This document shows positions 18,188-22,517 of a stretch of DNA of 64,000 nt, one piece after another (the stretch's first letter is position 1; each line of letters opens with the position of its first letter). Location: positions 62,001 through 126,000 of the forward strand of contig JAJZVM010000007.1 in NCBI GenBank assembly GCA_021845645.1. The letters are read 5' to 3'. The stretch is from Bacillota bacterium (GTDB lineage: Bacteria > Bacillota_E > JAJZYS01 > JAJYTV01). The notes below the pieces were generated by a model. It saw nothing but the letters and a program-made list of their open reading frames with translations, was not told the origin of the DNA and searched no databases. The position numbers and the translations under genes are program-made.

Positions 18188-19294
18188 GTGACGGTGCTGC
18201 AGGGCACGGTGCGCGTGCTGATCTGCGACGATTCGGCTGTCGCGCGCCAGTTCATCGCACGCGCCTGCGAGATGGTTCCCGGTATCGAGATCGCCGGGCG
18301 CGCCGGCAACGGCGAAGAGGCGGTTCGCCTCGCGCGTCTGCTGCGCCCGGATGTCATCACGATGGACGTCGAGATGCCGGGCATGGGCGGCATCGAGGCG
18401 GTGCGCCGTATCATGGCGGTGGCGCCGACCCCGATCCTCATGGTTTCGAGCCTCACCCACGAGGGCAGCATCGTCACGCTGGAGGCGCTGAATGCCGGCG
18501 CCCTGGACTTCGTGCCGAAGCCTGGCCCCCAGGAGGATGCCCATCGGCAGGCCGCCCTCGTGGCGGAAAAGATCCTGCAGCTGGGCGAGCGCGGCAAGCA
18601 GGCCCTGGGACTCGGACACGCCGAGGGCCGGCAGGTGCGGGCAGAACCCGCCCCACCCATGCACCGGGAGCCGGCACGGTCCGAGAGGCCGACCGCGCCG
18701 CCGCCCGTGCGTCCAGGCAGGTTGCCGCTCGTGGTCATCGGCGCCTCCACCGGCGGGCCGAGGGCCTTGTTCAGCGTCGTGCCCCACCTGCCCAAGGACT
18801 TTGCCGCCGCCGTGCTGATCGTGCAGCACATGCCGCAGGGATTCACGCGCTCGCTGGCGGAGCGCCTCGACGACCAGGGCCCTCTGCCGGTGCGGGAGGC
18901 CGAGCAGGCCGAGGAACTGCGCCAGGGAGTCGTGCGGGTCGCGCCGGCGGGGCACCACCTCGTCGTTTCCGGCATGCAGCTGAAGCTTTCCGACACGCCG
19001 ACGGAGCATGGCGTGCGCCCGGCCGTCGACGTCACCCTGCGTACGGCGGCCGCCACCTATCCAGGGCCGATCGTCGCCGCGATCCTGACCGGCATGGGCC
19101 GGGACGGAACCGACGGAGCCCAGCGGGTGCGCCAGGCAGGCGGACATGTGATCGCGGAGTCCGAGGCCACCGCGCTGATCTACGGCATGCCGAAGTCGGT
19201 GGTGGAAGCGGGCGCCGCGGACTGCATCGCCGACCTCGGCGAGGTCGCCTACGAGATCGTGCGCTTTACCGAGGAGGCAGGGCGTGGCCACTGA
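18188..19294 (+). CDS. cheB: Chemotaxis methylesterase/deamidase CheB
   Basis: This 368-aa two-domain protein has a receiver with phospho-acceptor D60 (VITMDVEMPGMGG) and K (DFVPKPG). A Pro-rich linker leads to the methylesterase domain with Ser in VVIGASTGGPRAL, His in LIVQHMPQGFTRSLAERL and Asp in TGMGRDGTDGA. It removes methyl groups from receptor glutamates during adaptation. The GTG start has GGGAGGTCGTGAC upstream. Its stop overlaps the cheR start by 11 bases, so the two antagonistic enzymes are translationally coupled. Confidence 0.95.
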   Translation: MTVLQGTVRVLICDDSAVARQFIARACEMVPGIEIAGRAGNGEEAVRLARLLRPDVITMDVEMPGMGGIEAVRRIMAVAPTPILMVSSLTHEGSIVTLEALNAGALDFVPKPGPQEDAHRQAALVAEKILQLGERGKQALGLGHAEGRQVRAEPAPPMHREPARSERPTAPPPVRPGRLPLVVIGASTGGPRALFSVVPHLPKDFAAAVLIVQHMPQGFTRSLAERLDDQGPLPVREAEQAEELRQGVVRVAPAGHHLVVSGMQLKLSDTPTEHGVRPAVDVTLRTAAATYPGPIVAAILTGMGRDGTDGAQRVRQAGGHVIAESEATALIYGMPKSVVEAGAADCIADLGEVAYEIVRFTEEAGRGH

Positions 19295-20060
19295 CGAGTA
19301 CCTTGTCTTGCAGGATGCGGTGCGGCGGCGGCTGGGATTGGAACTCGCACACTACAAGCGCGAGCAGATGGAGCGGCGGCTCAAGGCCTATGCGGTCCAG
19401 CACGGCTACCGAGACCTCGCCGGCCTCGCGCAGGCGCTCGGCGCCGAGCCCCAGCTGGGCGGCGAGGTGCTCTCCTACCTGACCATCCACGTTTCGGAGT
19501 TCTTCCGCGACCCGAACTTCTTCTCGCATCTCAAGGAGCTCGTGGCGGCCCTGCCGCAGAGCACCGGCAAGCCTCTGCAGGTCTGGAGCGCCGGCTGCTC
19601 GATCGGCGCCGAGGCGTACTCGCTGGCGATGCTGCTCCTCGAGGAGCGGGGACCGGACGGCGCCAGGATCCTCGCGTCCGACATCGACGACCGGAGCCTT
19701 GAGCGGGCGAGGCGCGGCGTCTACCGCGAGGACGAGCTCAAGAAGGTGGATGCGGCCCGCCTTCGCCGCTACTTCGTGCAGGAGGGCAGCGACTTCACGG
19801 TCCGCGAGGATCTCAGGCGCCAGATCACCTTCCGCCATCACGACCTGCTGCGCGATCCCTATCCTGCGGAGCAGGACATCATCCTGTTCCGCAACGTCGC
19901 GATCTACTTCACCGAGGACGCCAAGGCTCAGGTGCTGGCGGGTCTCGCCAGGGCGCTTGGGCCGCAGGGTCTCCTGATGGTCGGCGCCACCGAGGCGATC
20001 CTCCGGCCTCTGGAACTCGGTCTGCGGCAGGTGCGACCGTTCTTCTTCGCCCGCCTCTGA
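19284..20060 (+). CDS. cheR: Chemotaxis protein methyltransferase CheR
   Basis: CheR methylates chemoreceptor glutamates using SAM. The 258-aa sequence has the N-terminal helical domain (YKREQMERRLKAYAVQHGYR) and LTIHVSEFFRDPNFF. The SAM site is LQVWSAGCSIGAEAYSLAM, followed by ILASDIDDRSLERARRGVY and DIILFRNVAIYFTEDA. GTG 19284 follows GAGGAGGCAGG. The length is standard. Confidence 0.95.
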   Translation: MATDEYLVLQDAVRRRLGLELAHYKREQMERRLKAYAVQHGYRDLAGLAQALGAEPQLGGEVLSYLTIHVSEFFRDPNFFSHLKELVAALPQSTGKPLQVWSAGCSIGAEAYSLAMLLLEERGPDGARILASDIDDRSLERARRGVYREDELKKVDAARLRRYFVQEGSDFTVREDLRRQITFRHHDLLRDPYPAEQDIILFRNVAIYFTEDAKAQVLAGLARALGPQGLLMVGATEAILRPLELGLRQVRPFFFARL

Positions 20061-20123
20061 CCCGAGCAGTGGCGGGAGACCGCTGCGAAGTCCCGCAAAG
20101 ACGGCCCCATGGGAGGTGCCGGG

Positions 20124-21152
20124 TTGCCCTACGAACCCTTGAGCCACATGCAGGTGCGGATGCGCGTCAAGGACCGCGGCACCGGCTACACCCCCTGCCC
20201 GGTGAGCGCAGGGGGCGGACGTTCGCTGCTGGTGCAGGTGCCGCGCGGCGACGCGGGACTGCCCTGGGTGCCGCCAGGCACCGAGGTCGAGCTCCTGCGC
20301 AAGGACGGGCTGCGGGCTGCCGCCGGCACGGTGCGGGCACGCTCCCTGCGTCCGGTGCCGAGCTTTGCCGTCGAGCTGCGCGAGCCGCTCCTGCAGGATG
20401 TCCTCTACACCCCCAAGGAAGGTCGCGCCGTGCTCGTGACGGGGGGCAAGGGCGGATCCGGCAAGACGTTCGTGTCGCTCGGCCTGTCGGTCCTCCTGGC
20501 ACAGCAGGGCTGGCGTGTCGCCCTGATCGACGCGGACCTCGGCACCGCGGACATCGCGGTGACCCTCGGCCTGCCGAGGGAGCCGCACCTCGGCCACGTG
20601 CTGGACCGCAAGGTGACCGGCGAAGCCGCCATGCAGCGGGAAGTACGGCCGAACCTTGCGGTGCTGCCCGGGGCGATGGGCGTGCGCTGGGGCGACCCGT
20701 CCGTCTGGAAGCTTGGGCATCTGCTGACGCTCGTGCAGGAGCTCCGCCCCGCCTACGACTTCGTCGTGCTGGACTCGCGCGCAGGCGTCGGCCAGGACGT
20801 GACGGCGCTCTGGCAGGGCGTCGACCGTGTGCTCTTCGTGACGGTGGACGAGCCGGCGGGCATGGCCGATACCCTGGGCCTGCTCGAGGCGTTCGGCGAG
20901 ACGGGCCGGCTGCGTTCCGGGGCACTCGTCGTCAACCGGGTGCACAGCTACCGCGACGCCTCCGACCGCCTGCTCGCCTTCGCCAAGAACGTGCGTCAGC
21001 AGACCGGCCGGGAACTGCCGCTCTGGGGCGTGCTGCAGGAGGACCCGCGGGTGCATGCGCTCGCCGCCGAGGGCAAGATCCTGATCGAGTCGCATCCGCT
21101 CGCCCCGACGTCGGTCGCGCTGCGCCAGCTCGCGGCGCGCGTACAGGCCTGA
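20124..21152 (+). CDS. FlhG/YlxH-like MinD-family ATPase with N-terminal beta domain
   Basis: This is a 342-aa ParA/MinD-type ATPase. The deviant Walker A lies at about residues 109-116 (VTGGKGGSGKTFVSL), followed by VALIDADLGTADIAVTLGL and the Walker B-like FVVLDSRAGVGQDV. MinD-like proteins beside chemotaxis and flagellar genes are usually FlhG, which controls flagellar number with FlhF. The first ~95 residues are extra and look like a small beta-barrel reminiscent of the YcgR N domain (VELLRKDGLRAAAGTVRARS). TTG 20124 is preferred because GGGAGGTG lies six bases upstream; ATG 20109 overlaps that site. Confidence 0.8.
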   Translation: MPYEPLSHMQVRMRVKDRGTGYTPCPVSAGGGRSLLVQVPRGDAGLPWVPPGTEVELLRKDGLRAAAGTVRARSLRPVPSFAVELREPLLQDVLYTPKEGRAVLVTGGKGGSGKTFVSLGLSVLLAQQGWRVALIDADLGTADIAVTLGLPREPHLGHVLDRKVTGEAAMQREVRPNLAVLPGAMGVRWGDPSVWKLGHLLTLVQELRPAYDFVVLDSRAGVGQDVTALWQGVDRVLFVTVDEPAGMADTLGLLEAFGETGRLRSGALVVNRVHSYRDASDRLLAFAKNVRQQTGRELPLWGVLQEDPRVHALAAEGKILIESHPLAPTSVALRQLAARVQA

Positions 21153-21273: not shown

Positions 21274-21708
21274 ATGCCGAGACTTGAGGCGGGGACGACC
21301 TTTCCGCAGCTGCCGGGCCTCGCGCCGGTGAACGTGGAGATCGGTCGCCAGCCGTTTGTTCTCTATTTCTACCCGAAGGCGTTCACGGGCGGCTGAACGC
21401 GCGAGGCGCAGGACTTCGAGCGGTCGCTCGACAGACTTCAGGCGGCAGGTGTGAAGGTATTCGGCTGCAGCACGGATGAACCAGAGGTGAACCAGCGCTT
21501 CCAGGCCGAACTCGGCGTGCACTTTCCGATCCTCTCGGATACGGCCGGCCGTGCGGCGCAAGAGCTAGGCATCCTCGCGCCTAGCGGCCATGCCCAGCGC
21601 ACGACCTATCTGGTCGACGGCGGCGGCATGCTGCGGCGGGTGTGGTACGACGTCAAGGTGGACGGTCACGCCGAGGCGGTCAGCGAGGCGGCACAGGCTC
21701 TGGCCTGA
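21274..21708 (+). CDS. Selenocysteine-containing peroxiredoxin (Bcp/AhpC-TSA type), TGA read as Sec
   Basis: The full frame is 144 residues if TGA at 21394-21396 is decoded as selenocysteine 41. The sequence around it, LYFYPKAFTGG-U-TREAQDF, matches the peroxiredoxin active site LYFYPKxFTxGCTxEA with U exactly at the peroxidatic cysteine. Downstream coding continues without damage (VKVFGCSTDEPEVNQRFQAE, FPILSDTAGRAAQELGI, RTTYLVDGGGMLRRV). A hairpin with a GGTC loop lies at 21417-21430. The usual Bcp resolving Cys is Gln here, so it is 1-Sec-like. The enzyme reduces peroxides using thiols. ATG 21274 follows GGGGGA. Needs selA/B/C/D elsewhere. Confidence 0.85.
21417..21430 (+). promoter_or_regulatory. 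Candidate bacterial SECIS hairpin
   Basis: CGAGC (21417-21421) and GCTCG (21426-21430) form a 5-bp stem capped by the tetraloop GGTC. The loop begins 26 nt after the in-frame TGA, inside the coding region. Bacterial SECIS elements lie immediately 3' of UGA and present a GG(U) apical loop to SelB; the E. coli fdhF element also shows GGUC. The imperfect lower stem cannot be settled by eye. Confidence 0.7.
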
Positions 21709-21770: not shown

Positions 21771-22157
21771 TCAGGGCCGGACGACCACCACGTCGATGTC
21801 GAGGTCAAGGTTCGACCAGCTGCGATCGGCGGTGATCGCCTGCGCATGTTCGGACCGCGCCAGTTGCAGGCAGGCGCGGTCGCCCAGCGAAAGGCCGGCA
21901 CGCCGCGTCTCATGCCGGAGTGCTGCTGTGCCGGTCGCCTCCGCCTGCCCGAAGGCGCACACGGTGATTGGCAGCATGTTGCACGCCGCCAAGGCCTCTT
22001 GCGCCGGCATGCCCTCGTCCTCAAGCTTCGTGAGCACTTCCGCCAGGTTGACCGCACTCATCAGCGCGCCCGGCAGGTACCGCAGCACGACATCGTAGCC
22101 AGGCTCGCGGTGAAGCAGGGCCAGCAAGGCAGAGGCGTCCAGAACGCTCTTATCCAT
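21771..22157 (-). CDS. vapC: VapC-type PIN-domain ribonuclease toxin
   Basis: This 128-aa PIN-domain protein cleaves RNA when its antitoxin is lost. The acidic metal-binding residues are present: D7 (VLDASALLALL), E40 (AVNLAEVL), D93 (LSLGDRACLQLA) and D111 (AITADRSW). ATG 22157 overlaps the end of the antitoxin gene by 8 bases, the typical order antitoxin then toxin. Upstream in-frame starts would read through the antitoxin and are rejected. Confidence 0.9.
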   Translation of the reverse strand: MDKSVLDASALLALLHREPGYDVVLRYLPGALMSAVNLAEVLTKLEDEGMPAQEALAACNMLPITVCAFGQAEATGTAALRHETRRAGLSLGDRACLQLARSEHAQAITADRSWSNLDLDIDVVVVRP

Positions 22158-22398
22158 CTCTCTCCTCGCGCCGCCGCTCCTGGAGCAGCTCGGACGTGAG
22201 ATCACGGTCCGGAGGGATATATCTGCCCACAAGCTCTTGCGCCTGGCGCACGGCCTGCTCCATGCGCAGGAGCCTGAGCGACCCGTCCTCGAGCATCAGT
22301 ACGAGATCATCTCCCTCCGACAGCGCAAGAGCCTCGCGATAGGCGGCAGGGATGACGACGCGCCCACCTGCACCCAGCCGCACGCGCTCCATTGGCAT
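22150..22398 (-). CDS. vapB: AbrB/SpoVT-type VapB antitoxin
   Basis: This 82-aa antitoxin has an N-terminal swapped-hairpin AbrB DNA-binding domain (RVRLGAGGRVVIPAAYREAL, ALSEGDDLVLMLEDGSLRLL). The C-terminal helix (MEQAVRQAQELVGRYI) probably wraps around VapC. ATG 22398 is chosen because AGAGGTGG lies 5-8 bases upstream; a second ATG follows two codons later. It precedes vapC and should repress its own promoter. Confidence 0.88.
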   Translation of the reverse strand: MPMERVRLGAGGRVVIPAAYREALALSEGDDLVLMLEDGSLRLLRMEQAVRQAQELVGRYIPPDRDLTSELLQERRREERDG

Positions 22399-22415
22399 GG
22401 GACCACCTCTATGCA

Positions 22416-22444
22416 AGTATGGCGCTCGAAGAGAGCGATGGCAA
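22416..22444 (-). promoter_or_regulatory. vapBC promoter with operator-like inverted repeat in the spacer
   Basis: On the - strand, TTGCCA (complement of 22439-22444) and CATACT (complement of 22416-22421) are separated by exactly 17 bp, a sigma-A-type arrangement just upstream of the vapB ribosome binding site. The spacer contains CGCTC (22423-22427) and GAGCG (22433-22437), an inverted repeat placed where a VapB-VapC complex could block polymerase. Confidence 0.6.
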
Positions 22445-22517
22445 CCATGTGGCGCGTATGGTGGCATGGCGAAAAAACACGCCATTCCGGTGGCCACAGT
22501 GACGACCTGGGTTCTGG

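What the first reader, a model, noticed from the sequence alone, without database searches (positions are those of the whole stretch)
21274..21708. Peroxiredoxin gene with in-frame TGA at the catalytic cysteine and a SECIS-like hairpin: a likely undescribed selenoprotein
The frame is intact on both sides of TGA 21394-21396, and the TGA falls exactly where peroxiredoxins have their peroxidatic Cys (LYFYPKAFTGG-U-TREA). A CGAGC-GGTC-GCTCG hairpin follows 20-33 nt downstream, with the GGUC apical loop seen in E. coli fdhF. A random nonsense mutation would be unlikely to hit this one codon and also carry the hairpin. Gene finders would miscall it as two fragments or a pseudogene. It predicts a full Sec machinery (selA, selB, selC, selD) elsewhere in this genome.
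Basis: partly seen in the sequence, partly recalled or inferred. Interest (0 to 1): 0.9.

Follow-up and report, generated by a model that had tools for sequence, protein, structure and literature searches.

The report
Unannotated selenium-containing peroxiredoxin gene
A bacterial peroxide-removing enzyme is very probably built with selenocysteine at its active site through an in-frame UGA that gene finders read as a stop; the enzyme type is already known, so this is a well-supported new member rather than a new kind.

Summary
Observation confirmed. Window 21274-21708 (+) encodes a 144-residue PrxQ/BCP-type peroxiredoxin interrupted only by TGA 21394-21396, exactly at the peroxidatic Cys codon (PKAFTGGU). 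It is not a random nonsense mutation or assembly error: nine orthologues in nine other genomes carry TGA at that codon, and all ten copies share TTCGAGCGGTCGCTCGA downstream. Of the other 97 distinct homologues read, 96 have Cys there and one distant one has TGA. Of the nine genomes, 8 have selB over the cut-off (1 in pieces), 8 full selA (1 partial) and 8 tRNA-Sec(UCA) (1 not recovered). The clade's one Cys copy (G065) lacks the hairpin, and no selA, true selB or tRNA-Sec was found in its genome. Among the listed protein-database hits the closest relatives are only 83-90 aa fragments. 'Undescribed' needs qualifying: TxxU Sec-peroxiredoxins are an established family. The hairpin alone is not rare by chance; its conservation is the evidence. 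The window's own genome is not held, so its Sec machinery is inferred from relatives.

The parts
21274..21708 (+). Sec-peroxiredoxin (PrxQ/BCP type), 144 aa including Sec41, stop TGA 21706-21708
   Evidence: Pfam AhpC-TSA 5.4e-25; AF2 model pLDDT 95.6 with PrxQ/BCP proteins as the best PDB folds
21394..21396 (+). UGA codon read as selenocysteine (residue 41, peroxidatic position)
   Evidence: TGA in 10 orthologues; of the other 97 distinct rows, 96 have Cys and one (L033) TGA; Pro34, Thr38 and Arg109 invariant in the 34-row alignment
21416..21431 (+). bSECIS-like hairpin UCGAGC-GGUC-GCUCGA, loop 21422-21425
   Evidence: Identical in all 10 TGA copies, absent from the Cys copy of G065; core MFE -8.8 kcal/mol
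21385..21387 (+). Thr38 of the TxxU motif (PKAFTGGU)
   Evidence: Invariant
21466..21468 (+). Cys65, the only Cys codon in the frame; among the rows found only in the window and G001-G004
21451..21708 (+). 85-aa GTG-started ORF: the fragment that a gene finder would call
   Evidence: database fragment P0002 (85 aa) matches at 95%
20109..21152 (+). MinD/ParA-type ATPase, upstream neighbour
   Evidence: Pfam; beside the Sec-Prx in L001-L004 and L112-L114, not found in L109-L111
18188..20060 (+). CheB (18188-19294) and CheR (19284-20060), conserved upstream context in L001-L004

Best explanation
The gene encodes a thiol/selenol peroxidase of the PrxQ/BCP type whose peroxidatic residue is selenocysteine. 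SelB carrying Sec-tRNA(UCA) is directed by the hairpin just downstream of UGA 21394-21396 and inserts Sec instead of termination. The Sec41 selenolate, held by Thr38, Pro34 and Arg109, attacks peroxide; the resulting selenenic acid is then reduced by a partner thiol. Shown by sequence comparison: frame, codon, position, hairpin conservation, machinery in relatives. Inferred: decoding in this organism, peroxidase activity, roles of the active-site residues (by analogy with known peroxiredoxins), identity of the reductant. The protein has no Cys at the +5 position of 2-Cys PrxQ, so it works either as a 1-Cys type enzyme or through Cys65.
For: TGA at the same codon in nine orthologues 49-80% identical; conserved gene order in L001-L004, and the ATPase neighbour also in L112-L114; pN/pS 0.09-0.43 on both sides of the TGA in six pairs. 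10 of 10 TGA copies have the identical hairpin, which meets the published bSECIS limits (4-nt loop starting GG, 6-bp stem, spacing 25 nt, core MFE -8.8; limits). G001-G004: tRNA-Sec, selB and selD in 4 of 4, selA in 3 of 4 plus a partial match. In the five further TGA genomes: selA 5 of 5, selB over the cut-off 4 of 5, ARAGORN tRNA-Sec 4 of 5. G065, with TGC, lacks the hairpin, and no selA, selB over the cut-off or ARAGORN tRNA-Sec was found in it. A known family has the same motif.
Against: No tRNA and no relative of the selA/selB/selD genes lies in the window, and its genome is not held. The hairpin shows invariance and no compensatory change, so the structure is not proven by covariation, and its folding energy is ordinary. 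With 45 nt folded the hairpin is in the predicted best structure in only 5 of 10 TGA copies; with the first 13 nt after the UGA left out, in 9 of 10. No protein evidence. G051 has a TGA copy, but its selB is in pieces and no tRNA-Sec was recovered. In G066, G067 and the Cys genome G065 the neighbours were not matched within the roughly 3-kb loci held.
Confidence: 0.96

Rival explanations
1. Pseudogene or sequencing/assembly error: the TGA is a nonsense change in a Cys-Prx gene.
For: A single TGA separates two open stretches, and the window's own genome is not available.
Against: The same TGA in nine other genomes, seven of them with the same ATPase neighbour; purifying selection on both sides.
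Confidence: 0.01
2. UGA is a general sense codon (for example Trp or Gly) in this lineage.
For: An open frame across the TGA.
Against: 9 of 10 window ORFs examined end in TGA, including the Prx itself; the homologues have Cys there, not Trp or Gly; the relatives have tRNA-Sec and selB.
Confidence: 0.005
3. Two separate products: a 40-residue peptide and an 85-residue protein restarted at GTG 21451.
For: Databases list such C-terminal fragments.
Against: Either piece alone lacks part of the fold and of the active site; residues on both sides of codon 41 are conserved as in one-piece homologues; gene finders stop at TGA mechanically.
Confidence: 0.02

Closest known systems
Sec-containing peroxiredoxin (Prx), PF00578 / COG1225 Bcp, TxxU motif; described in Eubacterium acidaminophilum (Sohling 2001, seen only as a reference in PMC13188914 and PMC9312934)
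   Same: AhpC-TSA domain, PxxxTxxU motif with Sec at the peroxidatic position, bSECIS right after the UGA
   Different: Far below the cut-off of NCBIfam's peroxi_PrxU model (28.6 against 270 bits); Gly-Gly before U; Cys65 in the window clade. The reference protein itself was not compared here
Cys-type PrxQ/BCP (Xanthomonas campestris PrxQ 5iiz, Burkholderia ambifaria 5enu)
   Same: Fold (TM normalised by the query 0.75-0.88 among the PrxQ/BCP chains listed, one fusion enzyme 0.74) and the conserved Pro, Thr and Arg
   Different: Sec instead of Cys; no Cys at the +5 position; about 30% identity

Membership tests
Selenoprotein (bacterial) | In-frame UGA conserved among orthologues and aligned with Cys in homologues | tested here: met
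   107 distinct rows, 11 TGA (10 in this clade plus L033), 96 Cys, no other residue
Selenoprotein (bacterial) | bSECIS downstream: 3-9 nt loop, 4-16 bp stem, G in the first two loop positions, 16-37 nt spacing, MFE <= -7.5 | tested here: met
   Loop GGUC, 6 bp, 25 nt, -8.8 kcal/mol (limits)
Selenoprotein (bacterial) | selA, selB, selC, selD in the same genome | tested here: inconclusive
   Window genome not held; found in relatives
Selenoprotein (bacterial) | Selenium found in the protein | not testable with these tools
   Needs 75Se labelling or mass spectrometry
Sec-Prx (TxxU, PF00578) | AhpC-TSA domain and PxxxTxxU motif | tested here: met
   PKAFTGGU; motif
NCBIfam peroxi_PrxU equivalog NF040737 | Score over the curated cut-off of 270 bits | tested here: not met
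   28.6 bits
NCBIfam PrxQ/BCP equivalogs NF053650 and NF006960 | Score over the curated cut-offs of 260 and 140 bits | tested here: not met
   84.1 and 66.5 bits
2-Cys PrxQ with resolving Cys at +5 | Cys at position 46 | tested here: not met
   Gln46

The most novel reading that the evidence does not exclude
A clade of Sec-PrxQ in which Sec41 is resolved by a lineage-specific Cys65 at the end of a central strand (a selenenylsulfide site not used by known PrxQ), and in which the SECIS requirement has fixed the protein's FERSL helix sequence.
Probability: 0.15. Interest if true: 0.5.

Novelty: new member of a known kind. Interest (0 to 1): 0.38.

Why it matters
It adds a well-supported, unannotated selenoprotein clade from uncultured Bacillota, whose closest relatives appear in the protein search only as C-terminal fragments. 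It includes a natural comparison: in one clade, Sec copies go with hairpin and Sec machinery, and the one Cys copy goes without. It also suggests an RNA signal that constrains the protein sequence: FERSL is invariant in the ten Sec copies and not in the Cys copies.

Tried and rejected
Own-genome search for the Sec machinery: no genome is held. No tRNA, no Rfam match and no relative of the selA/selB/selD ORFs in the window. Hairpin rarity as a stand-alone argument: rejected. Direction of the Sec/Cys change in G065: the tree puts it in the Sec clade (97/93) but its place inside is open, so Sec-to-Cys change versus retained Cys is not settled. Plasmid search: 181 records, all under 60% identity. 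Literature for this lineage: searches with Symbiobacterium, Limnochord, Sulfobacillus, acid mine drainage and Thermaerobacter and two general ones listed no paper that I could see describes this gene; only listings were seen except for the papers named in the report. A search on the fdhF hairpin was seen as a listing only. The Sulfobacillus thermotolerans paper (PMC7409299, passages) names a selenocysteine-containing PrxU; a table passage there gives a 178-aa thioredoxin peroxidase, perhaps the same protein; it was not compared here.

The tRNA-Sec covariance model alone is not specific: it rings in 14 of 14 control genomes, over the cut-off in 5, and over the cut-off in 10 of 10 genomes. I therefore counted only ARAGORN calls of tRNA-Sec(tca). 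In G051 and G065 the best match is a tRNA-Ser and a tRNA-Arg, and in G113 ARAGORN calls nothing. The selB model likewise rings in 14 controls (over the cut-off in 2), so only matches over the cut-off were counted.

Other TGA-bearing peroxiredoxins of the class: 16 stretches fetched, 12 matched the query again, 11 of those have TGA at position 41 and 1 has Cys; 4 gave no match at the limit used and were dropped.

Full report
What is there. The + strand frame 21274-21708 is open except for TGA 21394-21396 and reads MPRLEAG...LYFYPKAFTGG-U-TREAQDFERSLD.... With the TGA read as Cys it matches AhpC-TSA (E 5.4e-25); it stays under the cut-offs of all NCBIfam models listed. The closest solved structures are PrxQ/BCP-type proteins by sequence and by fold; the AlphaFold2 model has mean pLDDT 95.6 and pTM 0.90. 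In an alignment of 34 rows (the window, 10 clade members and 23 of the 120 proteins listed) Pro34, Thr38, residue 41 and Arg109 are invariant.

Orthologues. A scan of genome contigs found 514 relatives and kept the best 80 loci; a six-frame search of the 154 genomes held for the class of G003 gave matches in 103. Of the 11 best-scoring genomes (G001-G004, G049-G051, G065-G067, G073; 50-79% identical), 9 carry one TGA inside the match, and G065 and G073 none. In one search I read codon 41 in 111 rows: 85 TGC, 11 TGT, 15 TGA. Four TGA genes are there twice (L001-L004 = L105-L108), which leaves 107 distinct rows: 96 Cys and 11 TGA. Ten of the TGA rows form the clade of the window; one (L033, Poribacteria, 36% identical) is a distant separate case. 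None has another residue. Gene order CheB, CheR, MinD/ParA ATPase, Prx is kept in L001-L004 (CheB cut by the contig end in L001), and CheR and the ATPase are also beside the gene in L112-L114. L109-L111 (G066, G065, G067) gave no neighbour match within their roughly 3-kb loci. pN/pS is 0.09-0.43 on both sides of the TGA in six pairs.

The hairpin. UCGAGC-GGUC-GCUCGA lies 25 nt (to the loop) after the UGA and fits the published bSECIS limits (section read). All ten TGA copies of the clade keep TTCGAGCGGTCGCTCGA. Codons 48-52 are invariant in 5 of 5, against 5 of 43 other codons of identical amino acid, p = 1.5e-4; in the five closest rows alone, 5 of 5 against 29 of 82, p = 0.0075. These tests ignore relatedness. 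Results against: energy z-scores are ordinary. 15% of synonymous recodings of the window gene reach an equal Watson-Crick stem (1.3% for G066, 9.8% for G049; 14-57% over the three when G-U pairs and larger loops are allowed), and 41 of 1371 window TGAs have one. There is no covariation because the arms do not vary. The hairpin is in the best fold of 60 nt in 5 of 5 close copies, in the best fold of 45 nt in only 5 of 10, and in 9 of 10 when the first 13 nt after the UGA are left out. E. coli fdhF has GGTC 18 nt after its UGA.

Machinery. G001-G004: tRNA-Sec with anticodon TCA in 4 of 4; selB over the cut-off in 4 of 4; selA over the cut-off in 3 of 4 and a partial match at a contig end in G001; selD in 4 of 4, each with one TGA inside. 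Second set: selA in G049, G050, G051, G066, G067 (5 of 5 TGA genomes) and not in G065. selB is over the cut-off in G049, G050, G066, G067, in pieces partly at a contig end in G051, and in G065 only below the cut-off (best 194.8 bits against 242.25). ARAGORN calls tRNA-Sec in G049, G050, G066, G067 and not at the best sites of G051 and G065, where it calls tRNA-Ser and tRNA-Arg. The covariance model alone passes its cut-off in 10 of 10 of these genomes and in 5 of 14 controls, so it was not counted by itself. selD was not searched in this set. Four more distant genomes with a Cys copy as best match (G069, G073, G092, G113) have selB, three of them with tRNA-Sec: machinery does not force Sec, but nearly every Sec copy comes with machinery. 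The completeness of these genomes, G065 included, is not given.

Tree. Ten Sec rows and G065 form one clade (97/93); the branching inside is open, so whether G065 went from Sec to Cys is not settled (30 rows).

Gene calling. Of the 120 listed relatives (1511 in all), P0002-P0011 and P0013 are 83-90 aa long and cover 49-63% of the query; the 7 of these 11 whose sequences I read begin after the TGA. The best full-length entry, P0012, is a 46% identical Cys protein.

Known or new. Sec-peroxiredoxin is an established family: 12 in the 2006 survey, and one is listed for Symbiobacterium thermophilum (PMC1794560, passages). The 2026 review lists Prx with motif TxxU ahead of its 'predicted with high confidence' group and cites Sohling 2001 (PMC13188914, passages and one section); the 2022 review lists it as COG1225 Bcp, TxxU (PMC9312934, passages). 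PMC1242214 was seen in passages only. The class also holds other TGA-bearing peroxiredoxins: 11 of 12 re-matched stretches, of 16 fetched, have TGA at position 41. So this is a new member, in a clade for which my literature searches listed no description.

Mechanism. Sec41 very likely attacks peroxide as in other Sec-Prx. The reductant is not known. Gln46 replaces the +5 resolving Cys. Cys65 is the only other thiol and occurs only in the window and G001-G004 among the rows; the other five Sec copies have Ala, so Cys65 cannot be needed in the whole clade.

Noticed in passing
L033:1869-2216: Poribacteria MAG with a separate TGA at the peroxidatic codon of a 36% identical peroxiredoxin: another likely Sec-Prx.
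   Followed up: partly
L155-L158, L160, L161, L163, L164, L166-L168: Other peroxiredoxin-like genes in the same class carry TGA at the peroxidatic codon (11 of 12 re-matched stretches): the class looks rich in Sec-peroxiredoxins.
   Followed up: partly
L101-L104: selD of G001-G004 contains one in-frame TGA; in L102 and L104 it lies in a GUxCK motif, so a Sec-type SelD is likely.
   Followed up: partly
window 21771-22497 (-): PIN-domain / MazE-type antitoxin pair downstream of the peroxiredoxin, with matches downstream of it in L003 and L004 and none in L001 or L002.
   Followed up: partly
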